From IMG/VR virus record IMGVR_UViG_3300009441_000051, positions 1-23,151 of that record: a DNA stretch of 23,151 nucleotides. One strand, written 5' to 3'. Below are positions 12,937 through 17,564 of this stretch, in pieces. The notes under the pieces are model-generated. The model was given only the letters and a program-made list of their open reading frames with translations, was not told where the DNA came from and ran no database searches. This stretch comes from a virus. Within the stretch, counting starts at the first letter, position 1. Each line of letters starts with the position of its first letter. Position numbers and translations under genes: made by a program.

Positions 12937-12949
12937 AACGTATATATAA
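12937..12949 (+). promoter_or_regulatory. recurrent leader motif AACGTATATATAA
   Basis: The 13-mer AACGTATATATAA begins one base after the stop codon of the preceding gene and lies in the 62-base leader of the S1 gene. The same 13-mer recurs at 18411-18423 ahead of the gp25 gene. It is a candidate late promoter of this phage; I cannot test it. Confidence 0.35.
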
Positions 12950-12997: not shown

Positions 12998-14266
12998 ATG
13001 TCAGAAGACGTTAAAACAAAAAGAGTAAGATTGGTTGAAAATAAACCAGAAACTCAACCAAAAAAAGAAAATGACAAATTAGCATACTTAGAAAATGCTA
13101 ACGTCGCACCTGAGAAATTCGACTGGGATGCTCACCAAGCATCGTGTCCTTCTAGATCTAGAAAGATAAACAAAGGTCTTAAGAATACAGGTAATCACAA
13201 TGTGTATTCACATGAGCCGTATGCTCAAGATTTCTTAAACCTATTAAACGGATACGAAGAAACTAAACCTGTTCAGATGAAAATCGAGGTAGGTGAGATT
13301 TATACAGGTAACATTTATAGCATAAACGAGGAATGGGTATCAGTTGATATTGGTTATCGTGAAAATGTATATGTTAACGTATTGAAAGAAGAGGCTAGTG
13401 TTAGAGGGTTATTTGTACCTGATGCAGAAGTTAAGATTCAAGTTATTCAAATTGAAGGAGGGAGAGGATTCGTATTAGGATCTATTAGCGCTGGTATTAA
13501 ATCAGCAGTAGCTAAAGAGATAATGGCATCCATTGAAGAAGGTACTACCGGATATATGGGTACAGTTTCTTACATGATCCCTGGAGGAGGTTATATAGTA
13601 ACTGTTCAAGGAATTGAATGTTTTATGCCAGGTTCTCTAGCAGGAATTAACAAATTAGCAGATTTTGAATCTATCGTAGGAAGTGACATGTATGTTGTTC
13701 CAGTAAGTTTTTCAGAAAAAAGAGGAACTATTGTAGTATCTCATAGAGAATACTTAAAAGCGATGATTCCTTCTAAGATTGACGCATTAAAGGAAAACTT
13801 AGGACAAGATCTCACAGGTAAGGTAACAGGTTCTGCAAAATACGGAGTATTTGTAGAGTTTGATGAATGTTTAACAGGGATGATCCATGTTAACGACCTA
13901 ACACCTGAATTATTAAAAGCACATAGATCAAGAGAGATTAAACCAGGAGATGATATTGCTTTTAAGATTAAGGAAGTTGTATCAAATGAAAAGATTATTC
14001 TAACTCAATTAGATGCGAAACCAGTTGTTGACCTATGGGACGGCATATCAGAACGTATTAAAACACCAAGTGAAGTTGTTGGAACTGTAAGAGCAGTTAA
14101 AGATTACGGAATCTTTGTAGATATTGAAAAAGGAGTTGCCGGATTATTGCATATTTCAGAAATTGAAGATGTAATAGATTTAGAGACTATTAAACCAGGA
14201 GATAAAATAACGGTACAGGTTACTAGAATCGACGCAGACTCTAGAAAGATTTTCTTGAAAATCTAA
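12998..14266 (+). CDS. phage ribosomal protein S1-like protein, four S1 domains
   Basis: A 422-residue RNA-binding protein related to bacterial ribosomal protein bS1, which captures mRNA on the 30S subunit. Residues 1-30 are a basic disordered tail. APEKFDWDAHQ (37-47) matches the N-terminal (D/E)(F)(N/D)WDA motif I recall from Bacteroidota bS1. S1 domains lie at about 97-163, 181-254, 270-340 and 357-422. Domain 2 keeps GGGYIVTVQGIECFMPGS, typical of bS1 domain 2. Domains 3 and 4 keep the canonical YGVFVEF / YGIFVDI and TGMIHVNDL / AGLLHISEI strands. Cellular Bacteroidota bS1 usually has about six domains, so this is a shortened form that retains the ribosome-docking end. The A-rich leader lacks a Shine-Dalgarno sequence, and a terminator follows at 14289. 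Redirecting host ribosomes to phage mRNA is a reasonable but unproven role. Confidence 0.92.
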   Translation: MSEDVKTKRVRLVENKPETQPKKENDKLAYLENANVAPEKFDWDAHQASCPSRSRKINKGLKNTGNHNVYSHEPYAQDFLNLLNGYEETKPVQMKIEVGEIYTGNIYSINEEWVSVDIGYRENVYVNVLKEEASVRGLFVPDAEVKIQVIQIEGGRGFVLGSISAGIKSAVAKEIMASIEEGTTGYMGTVSYMIPGGGYIVTVQGIECFMPGSLAGINKLADFESIVGSDMYVVPVSFSEKRGTIVVSHREYLKAMIPSKIDALKENLGQDLTGKVTGSAKYGVFVEFDECLTGMIHVNDLTPELLKAHRSREIKPGDDIAFKIKEVVSNEKIILTQLDAKPVVDLWDGISERIKTPSEVVGTVRAVKDYGIFVDIEKGVAGLLHISEIEDVIDLETIKPGDKITVQVTRIDADSRKIFLKI

Positions 14267-14288: not shown

Positions 14289-14319
14289 AAAGGCCCATTC
14301 ATTTTATGTTTGGGCCTTT
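14289..14319 (+). terminator. intrinsic terminator after the S1 gene
   Basis: A perfect 9-bp stem, AAAGGCCCA with TGGGCCTTT, around a 13-base A/T-rich loop, followed by CTTATTTATAA. It lies 22 bases after the S1 stop. The T tract is short, so termination may be partial. It separates the baseplate/S1 unit from the next small genes. Confidence 0.8.
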
Positions 14320-16271: not shown

Positions 16272-17564
16272 ATGAACACATTTAACGATTCAGAGATACT
16301 GAAAAATTGCCTTGTTGGGGTAGAATTTGAATTCTATTCTAATCTACCAATTGATAAAACTGCAAAAGAACTTGCTGGATTATTAAATAAGAAGATTAGA
16401 GTAGAGGATAAAGCACATAGTGATTTTGAAGTTACTTCCAGTGAGTTTAAAATAGAGCCAGATATGAGTGGTGGTGAAAAGCTAATGGAGCTTGTTACCG
16501 GCGCACTGCCATATTATAGTGCTAGATTGATGATTATCAATGTATGCAAATGGATCGAAGAGAACGGCTACACAAATGATAGATCTTCAATTCACCTAAA
16601 TTTATCTTTCGATAAAAATAAAATAGAGGACAAGAACAGAATTTCTAAAATGAATGTTCTTAAATTTATACTTGACTTTAAAGAGGAAAAAGTATTTAAA
16701 TTCTTTCCAAAGAGAGAAGATTCAGCGTATGCTAAATCTGTAAAATTTGTACTACCAAAAGAAGGTATGAGTTTCTTTAACGGAGAACATATACACTCAC
16801 AGAACTTCATCTACCCTGATTCTAAATACTATGGAATCAACTTTGACAAGAGACATAAAAACTATTTAGAGTTTAGATATATCGGAGGGAAGGACTGGGA
16901 AAAGAAAACATCATCAATCCTACACTTGTTAGATCAATTCCTAATACAACTTTGGAATTCAACAGAAGATAAACATTTCAATCCTTTGAACGCAATAGAG
17001 TTAAAGAGGATATTGTCTGACAATAAAAGAATAATTGACGCTAGGTTAAATTGGAGAACAATTGAAAAGGAATGGAAAAACGTAAAGTTTACTGTTGATT
17101 TACAAAATGACTCTCAAGTTTTAGATTTACACTGGCCTAATATAAAGGACAAGGTGATAAAATTATTTACACACGGATCTCTAGTAAAAGGACATATTAA
17201 TTACGATTCAGATACAGGTAAGGTTCAAGTAAATGAAGGTGAATTAAATTACTGTGTTGAACTTGAAAGATACGATTTTATAGGATGCCATATACAAGGT
17301 GAATTATACTACTGCGATATGTTTCAATGTACCGTTGAAGGATCTGACATGTATGACTGTAACTTTTACGATAGTTGTGAAATAATTTCTTCAAAGATAA
17401 AAAGTAGCTATATTCACCAAAGTGTCAAAATAAAAGATGGTTATATATATGGTGATGGTATCTTAAAAGGTTCTATGGAAGGTGGAATATTTAGAGAAGG
17501 AAGATACGATAAAAAAATAGCAAAGTTTAATGGAACTGAAAAGATTCTATATACTGAAGTTTAA
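16272..17564 (+). CDS. amidoligase-like enzyme with Cys-rich beta-helical tail
   Basis: A 430-residue protein. The N-terminal 220 residues fit the GS-fold amidoligase family (COOH-NH2 ligases): GVEFEF at 16-21 (first metal/ATP-binding Glu pair), KIEPDMSGGEKLMELVTGAL (60-79) holding the acidic residue and the ElvtP-type strand, a helix YYSARLMIINVCKWIEENGY, then SSIHLNLSF (105-113), the conserved His strand, and YLEFRYIGG (198-206). Such enzymes use ATP to join an amine to a carboxylate, on peptides, proteins or small molecules. Residues about 325-411 repeat short strand-turn units with six Cys (328-369), e.g. FIGCHIQGELYYCDMFQCTV, suggesting a right-handed beta-helix like pentapeptide repeats. 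No partner ATP-grasp or peptidase gene is seen beside it. The substrate is unknown. Confidence 0.78.
   Translation: MNTFNDSEILKNCLVGVEFEFYSNLPIDKTAKELAGLLNKKIRVEDKAHSDFEVTSSEFKIEPDMSGGEKLMELVTGALPYYSARLMIINVCKWIEENGYTNDRSSIHLNLSFDKNKIEDKNRISKMNVLKFILDFKEEKVFKFFPKREDSAYAKSVKFVLPKEGMSFFNGEHIHSQNFIYPDSKYYGINFDKRHKNYLEFRYIGGKDWEKKTSSILHLLDQFLIQLWNSTEDKHFNPLNAIELKRILSDNKRIIDARLNWRTIEKEWKNVKFTVDLQNDSQVLDLHWPNIKDKVIKLFTHGSLVKGHINYDSDTGKVQVNEGELNYCVELERYDFIGCHIQGELYYCDMFQCTVEGSDMYDCNFYDSCEIISSKIKSSYIHQSVKIKDGYIYGDGILKGSMEGGIFREGRYDKKIAKFNGTEKILYTEV

What the first reader, a model, noticed from the sequence alone, without database searches (positions are those of the whole stretch)
12998..14266. Phage-encoded, shortened Bacteroidota-type ribosomal protein S1
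Seen: four S1 domains, an N-terminal FDWDA motif and a domain-2 segment with GGGYIVTVQGIECFMPGS. Known: bS1 docks on the 30S subunit through its N-terminal domains and captures mRNA; Bacteroidota start sites mostly lack Shine-Dalgarno sequences. Inference: the phage took the host gene, kept the ribosome-binding end plus mRNA-binding domains and lost about two domains, so it could compete with host S1 and favour phage messages that also lack Shine-Dalgarno sequences. Its location at the end of a baseplate unit points to late expression.
Basis: partly seen in the sequence, partly recalled or inferred. Interest (0 to 1): 0.8.

Follow-up and report, generated by a model that had tools for sequence, protein, structure and literature searches.

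The report
Phage-borne shortened ribosomal protein S1
A large phage that probably infects Bacteroidota carries its own four-domain version of ribosomal protein S1, locked among its tail genes and in near relatives paired with a phage copy of ribosomal protein S21, so it probably refits host ribosomes to start making phage proteins.

Summary
The ORF at 12998-14266 (422 aa) is real and is a bS1-derived protein. Domains 1 and 2 match cellular bS1 D1 and D2 in 19/19 relatives. The best structural matches are 30S-bound bS1, and an N-terminal F-x-W motif is shared with Bacteroidota bS1, including that of the F. johnsoniae ribosome. It belongs to a conserved phage family (80 loci fetched). The gene keeps its place in the tail/baseplate cluster, has its own conserved upstream box and terminator, and is under purifying selection (dN/dS about 0.07). 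Lak and 462-735 kb huge phages carry relatives. All phage S1s form one clade on a long branch, not nested in the Bacteroidota sampled, so recent capture from the host is not supported. Register of D3/D4 is ambiguous, so 'lost the last two domains' is plausible but unproven. New here: close relatives also encode bS21, about 18 kb upstream, with the tyrosine that locks the anti-SD in Bacteroidia. Phage messages do lack SD, but so do host messages, so SD absence cannot be the basis of selectivity. Huge-phage rpS1 and the hijacking idea were published in 2020. Verdict: new variant of a known kind; ribosome docking likely but untested.

The parts
12998..14266 (+). phage bS1-like protein, 422 aa, four S1/OB domains
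   Evidence: ORF; NCBIfam rpsA models; AF2 model and Foldseek to 30S-bound bS1
13118..13135 (+). FDWDAH motif, residues 41-46; F-x-W in all 46 distinct phage S1s of the clade and in the Bacteroidota bS1s examined; probable 30S anchor
13211..13264 (+). pre-D1 helix region, residues 72-89 (HEPYAQDFLNLLNGYEET region), aligns with E. coli uS2-binding helix SFAQLFEESL
   Evidence: AF2 helix 76-89, alignment, E. coli function PMC4288201
13280..13495 (+). S1 domain 1 (residues 95-166), with D117/R121 at the positions of E. coli D39/K43
   Evidence: domain profile: D1 best in 19/19; alignments
13541..13756 (+). S1 domain 2 (residues 182-253), most conserved; Y199/F209 at E. coli F120/F130
   Evidence: domain profile: D2 best in 19/19
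13790..14011 (+). S1 domain 3 (residues 265-338), RNA-binding type, F285 and H297 invariant
   Evidence: best profile is cellular D5, so register ambiguous
14051..14263 (+). S1 domain 4 (residues 352-422), RNA-binding type, Y370, F373 and H385 invariant
   Evidence: D4 and D5 profiles tie
12942..12949 (+). ATATATAA box, promoter-like, upstream of S1; same box precedes g16, amidoligase, gp25 and gp6 genes
   Evidence: 45 of 46 distinct relatives have ATATA[AT]A within 100 nt upstream vs 14% of shuffles; window sites
14289..14319 (+). intrinsic terminator of S1, 9-bp stem; compensatory stem changes in relatives
   Evidence: fold z -4.4, relatives' sequences

Best explanation
It is a phage-adapted, four-domain bS1, made with the late structural genes. 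It docks on the 30S subunit of a Bacteroidota host through its F-x-W motif, pre-D1 helix and domain 1 on uS2, in place of loosely bound host bS1. Domains 3 and 4 hold single-stranded leader RNA and feed it to the mRNA channel. In most of the clade it acts together with a phage bS21, so the two mobile proteins at the mRNA exit site of a share of the ribosomes become phage-made, favouring initiation on late phage messages. Shown: bS1 ancestry, conserved anchor-like features, conserved gene order, purifying selection, co-carried bS21 in relatives, SD-less phage genes. Inferred: ribosome binding, host bS1 replacement, late timing, and preference for phage messages, whose basis is unknown.
For: Collinear rpsA match; D1 and D2 identity in 19/19; top structural hit is the 30S mRNA-delivery complex bS1, E 2.7e-27. 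F-x-W is conserved outside the S1 domains and shared with cellular Bacteroidota bS1; pre-D1 helix and D39/K43 equivalents are kept. In E. coli D1-D3 suffice for 30S binding and D5-D6 are dispensable (PMC3858243). Gene order is fixed in the relatives and in LR756500; dN/dS about 0.07; own box and terminator. bS21 co-occurs. Added bS1 raises initiation on an SD-less mRNA in F. johnsoniae (PMC9976891).
Against: No experiment. Identity to cellular bS1 is only about 27-28% and the branch is long. LR756500 and the 635-735 kb relatives lack the F-x-W motif, so docking need not hold for the whole family. K43 is R in most members. Register of D3/D4 is uncertain. The host is inferred, not known. Nothing shows preference for phage over host mRNA.
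Confidence: 0.58

Rival explanations
1. Dominant-negative shut-off: it occupies the bS1 site on uS2 and blocks host initiation, without promoting phage messages.
For: Over-produced E. coli S1 residues 1-106 displace native S1 and inhibit translation of canonical mRNAs (PMC3296737); the protein keeps the docking end.
Against: Domains 3 and 4 with invariant RNA-face aromatics and His are kept under purifying selection, which a pure blocker does not need; phage messages are equally SD-less and would be hit too; late-type context.
Confidence: 0.13
2. Off-ribosome RNA chaperone or cofactor, such as an mRNA stabiliser or partner of a phage nuclease or polymerase, as host S1 serves T4 RegB and Q-beta replicase.
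For: Precedents (PMC13157829; Foldseek hit 4q7j); huge-phage relatives lost F-x-W but kept D2-D3; Al-Shayeb et al. left 'on or off the ribosome' open; the Lak gene lies beside a tRNA-His guanylyltransferase and DnaB helicase.
Against: In the window clade the F-x-W motif, helix and D1 loop are conserved; bS21, a ribosomal partner that touches bS1 D1 in E. coli, is co-carried.
Confidence: 0.2
3. Virion or baseplate structural protein that merely derives from bS1.
For: Locked between tail/baseplate genes in the relatives.
Against: The Lak relative is not in a structural block; RNA-binding residues are conserved; best fold matches are ribosomal S1.
Confidence: 0.05

Closest known systems
Cellular bS1 (rpsA) of Bacteroidota, e.g. 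F. johnsoniae (PDB 9zcd) and Bacteroides
   Same: D1-D2, F-x-W-type N-terminal motif, RNA-binding S1 domains after D2
   Different: 422 vs 591-600 aa, four domains not six, about 27-28% identity, N-terminal extension, gene in a phage tail cluster
rpS1-like proteins of huge phages (Al-Shayeb et al. 2020, PMC7162821) and their homologues in Lak phages
   Same: same phage-specific clade in the tree, three or four domains; hijacking hypothesis and rarity of SD already published
   Different: window clade keeps F-x-W; S1 is in the tail module (shared with LR756500); the window clade was found in IMG/VR and its S1 is not described in that paper's main text
Phage bS21 of Bacteroidota phages (Chen et al. 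2022, PMC9723584; Mizuno et al. 2019, PMC6375957)
   Same: phage-coded mobile 30S protein near structural genes, proposed ribosome substitution late in infection
   Different: a different ribosomal protein; those phages were reported to lack other ribosomal protein genes, whereas this clade has bS1 plus bS21 in a DnaJ-bS21-PhoH cluster
bS1 of Microcystis phage PhiMa05/MaAM05 (PMC13157829)
   Same: phage-encoded bS1, about 359 aa
   Different: falls outside the Bacteroidota-phage S1 clade in the tree; carried next to bL21 and bL27

Membership tests
bS1 (ribosomal protein S1) | tandem S1 domains with the bS1-specific degenerate D1 and D2 in order | tested here: met
   D1 and D2 profiles best in 19/19; collinear rpsA match
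bS1 (ribosomal protein S1) | full-length score above curated rpsA cut-off | tested here: not met
   160 vs 524 bits for NF004952 and similar; expected for a shortened, divergent relative, so filed as bS1-derived and not as canonical bS1
bS1 (ribosomal protein S1) | N-terminal 30S (uS2) anchor | tested here: met
   sequence level only: F-x-W, pre-D1 helix, D117/R121
bS1 (ribosomal protein S1) | binds the 30S subunit and mRNA | not testable with these tools
   needs pull-down or cryo-EM
Bacteroidota bS1 lineage | branches within Bacteroidota bS1 | tested here: inconclusive
   not a split with the Bacteroidota sampled; long branch; six Bacteroidota sequences, only one from Flavobacteriia
Phage S1 clade of large Bacteroidota phages | monophyly with Lak and huge-phage S1 | tested here: met
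   UFBoot 98 (D1-D2) and 85 (D1-D4)
PNPase / RNase S1 domains | closest S1 domains from nucleases | tested here: not met
   rpsA models down to 5.6e-47 vs PNPase 7e-15 and RNase R 4e-10

The most novel reading that the evidence does not exclude
A two-part phage 'initiation-site kit': a four-domain bS1 and a Bacteroidia-type bS21 with the anti-SD-locking tyrosine, both made by one phage, jointly replace the two mobile proteins at the 30S mRNA exit site and create phage-specific ribosomes that pick late phage messages in an SD-independent way.
Probability: 0.3. Interest if true: 0.85.

Novelty: new variant of a known kind. Interest (0 to 1): 0.6.

Why it matters
Phage rpS1 was reported in 2020 with doubt over whether such proteins are true S1. 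Here the evidence for true bS1 ancestry and kept docking features is concrete, the gene is an old, fixed part of a phage clade, and its pairing with bS21 points to the exact ribosome site that governs SD-free initiation in Bacteroidota. That makes the question of how phages steer SD-blind ribosomes directly testable with one or two genes in a model flavobacterium.

Tried and rejected
Scan of GTDB genome contigs for cellular relatives found only a rumen contig (L083) and two weak partial matches, so cellular bS1s were taken from plasmid-labelled records and one PDB chain. Scan of IMG/VR with Bacteroides bS1 found nothing. The genome search cannot draw kin for a virus record. The automatic terminator scan missed the S1 hairpin because of its 13-nt loop; folding found it. 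ATATATAA is not over-represented in the window as a whole (6 vs 5.7 expected); only its placement is informative. A weak Ribosomal_L21p hit in the ORF at 1300-2259 (E 0.004, under the cut-off) was rejected as an effect of its acidic repeats. The dN/dS figure for L005 was discarded (indel, no codon alignment). A domain tree gave no support for any single register of phage D3/D4.

Full report
OBSERVATION. The window is a 23,151-base IMG/VR virus fragment. The ORF 12998-14266 encodes 422 aa. Pfam S1 (1.2e-25) and many NCBIfam ribosomal protein S1 models match collinearly, best NF004952 with query 68-420 on 22-371 of 580. Scores are far under the full-length cut-offs, as expected for a short divergent relative. 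The gene is inside the tail/baseplate cluster and not at its end: it is followed on the same strand by an Amidoligase_2 gene, an Ad2-like adaptor, gp25-like and gp6-like genes.

RELATIVES. 103 IMG/VR stretches encode relatives; 80 loci were fetched. Aligned representatives are 47-81% identical to the window protein and other fetched loci reach 90%; the complete ones are 396-442 aa. Across the fetched loci, as far as each contig reaches, S1 lies downstream of the spike gene g15, in most next to g16, and upstream of amidoligase, Ad2, gp25 and gp6 genes, same strand. The 462-kb phage LR756500 keeps spike, baseplate protein, S1, amidoligase and Ad2-like genes in the same order at 35% S1 identity. 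Four 635-735 kb phages and Lak phages have more distant relatives. Lak S1 ends after about three domains and sits near a tRNA-His guanylyltransferase and a DnaB helicase. Thus the gene is an old core gene of the window's clade, under purifying selection (dN/dS 0.07-0.13 against close relatives; dS is high, so this is approximate).

IS IT A TRUE bS1? Al-Shayeb et al. noted that true rpS1 is hard to tell among S1-domain proteins. Profiles of each cellular domain assign phage D1 to D1 and D2 to D2 in 19 of 19 sequences. Phage D3 scores best against cellular D5 (41.5 bits vs 31.9 for D4 and 24.7 for D3), and phage D4 ties D4 and D5; a domain tree does not resolve this. So the last two domains are RNA-binding-type S1 domains of uncertain register. 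The AF2 model (pLDDT 73.6, pTM 0.47) has a helix at 76-89 and four OB folds; Foldseek's best hits are bS1 in 30S mRNA-delivery complexes (9gut, E 2.7e-27).

ANCHOR. E. coli bS1 is held by Phe5/Phe9 of an N-terminal helix on uS2 Phe32 and by loop residues Asp39/Lys43 (PMC4288201; PMC10123108). The phage family keeps a helix YAQ-[ED]-[LFM] that aligns with SFAQLF, Asp117 at Asp39 and Arg121 (K in a few) at Lys43. Upstream of it, F-x-W occurs in all 46 distinct sequences of the clade. Cellular Bacteroidota bS1s have the same F-[ND]-W motif near their N-terminus: Bacteroides, Parabacteroides, Prevotella and a gut contig, and PDB 9zcd, which shares its bS21 chain with the F. johnsoniae ribosome 7jil. 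The E. coli, Pseudomonas, Neisseria, Thioclava and Sulfurovum proteins examined lack it. Lak keeps F-[DN]-W; LR756500 and the 635-735 kb phages do not. That F-x-W is the uS2 anchor in Bacteroidota is my inference.

SHORTENING. In E. coli, D5-D6 can be deleted with a limited effect on growth, D4 stimulates, and D1-D3 suffice for 30S binding and for initiation on tested mRNAs (PMC3858243). If the phage set is equivalent to D1-D4 (or D1-D3 in Lak), it is close to the minimal working unit.

ORIGIN. In trees of D1-D2 and D1-D4, all 27 phage-type S1s (window clade, Lak, huge phages, rumen contig L083) form one clade (UFBoot 98 and 85) on a branch of about 1 substitution per site, and do not nest in the six Bacteroidota bS1s. 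Long-branch attraction and thin cellular sampling limit this. The F-x-W motif favours a Bacteroidota source; recent capture is not supported.

EXPRESSION. 45 of 46 distinct loci have ATATA[AT]A within 100 nt upstream of S1, mostly 34-58 nt from the start, against 14% in shuffles. In the window all five + strand ATATATAA sites lie just upstream of g16, S1, amidoligase, gp25 or gp6 genes, which suggests a shared late-type promoter. S1 ends in a 9-bp hairpin terminator (z -4.4) whose stem changes on both sides in relatives. Late expression is therefore a fair inference, not shown.

bS21. Ten of 16 S1-bearing contigs also encode bS21 over the Pfam cut-off, 16-34 kb upstream of S1 on the same strand, in a DnaJ-like / bS21 / PhoH-like cluster (gene identity of the two neighbours read from sequence). 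Conversely, nine of ten searched contigs with the closest bS21 relatives carry S1 (the tenth, G037, ends about 6 kb beyond its bS21 and is uninformative), while the ten searched contigs with more distant bS21 show none. Two large contigs of one subclade (G003, G007) lack bS21, as do LR756500 and Lak; the 635-735 kb phages have it. The contig of L001 (90% S1 identity to the window) has it 18 kb upstream, so the window's phage probably has it about 5 kb outside the window. All aligned copies keep the tyrosine that in F. johnsoniae bS21 (Tyr54) redirects the 16S tail and occludes the anti-SD. bS21 also touches bS1 D1 in E. coli. Unlike host rpsU, the phage bS21 genes show no SD, so they would escape the host's SD-based autoregulation (inference).

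SELECTIVITY. Only 16 of 294 genes in the window and relatives have a 4-base SD core, and mean pairing energy equals shuffles. This agrees with the published link between huge-phage rpS1 and missing SD. But Bacteroidota host genes are SD-less as well, so this does not explain preference for phage messages; leader composition, supply of limiting bS1 (sub-stoichiometric in F. johnsoniae preparations) or sheer message abundance are open options.

VERDICT. New variant of a known kind: phage ribosomal proteins and even huge-phage rpS1 are known; the sharper bS1 case, the anchor motif, the fixed place in the tail module and the bS1-bS21 pairing are what is added. I found no paper in the held library that treats them, but that library is partial.

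Noticed in passing
56-361, 364-903, 1300-2259: Three proteins begin with a similar short motif (MKFIKLFEQFITEKK, MKFIKTFEGWNK, MAKLKSFEQYVSEKE) that recalls, from memory, the capsid-targeting N-terminus of T4 internal head proteins; similar starts occur near S1 in huge phages (L082, L104, L105). S1 itself lacks it. They could be packaged and injected proteins.
   Followed up: no
1300-2259: Acidic protein with two near-identical copies of a stretch of about 40 residues (EEGNAFGDAVRKAKEAGDKEFEF.GKTYKVEES).
   Followed up: no
L110-L119, 16-34 kb upstream of S1 in relatives: Conserved cluster of DnaJ-like protein, small protein, bS21, small protein and PhoH-like ATPase in phages that carry S1.
   Followed up: partly
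16272-17564: Amidoligase_2 gene lies downstream of S1 in the relatives and in LR756500, and has homologues in 635-735 kb phages; its role in a tail module is unexplained.
   Followed up: partly
2356-2859: Deoxycytidylate/cytidine deaminase (PF00383, 4.8e-23), found upstream of the tail genes in several relatives too.
   Followed up: no
L083:5908-7053: S1 of the phage type (35% identical) on a contig binned as a rumen Erysipelotrichaceae MAG; probably phage DNA or a misbinned contig.
   Followed up: no
843-1247: The listed ORF overlaps its upstream neighbour by 61 bases; a start at the internal Met of MVDKDCKC is more likely.
   Followed up: no
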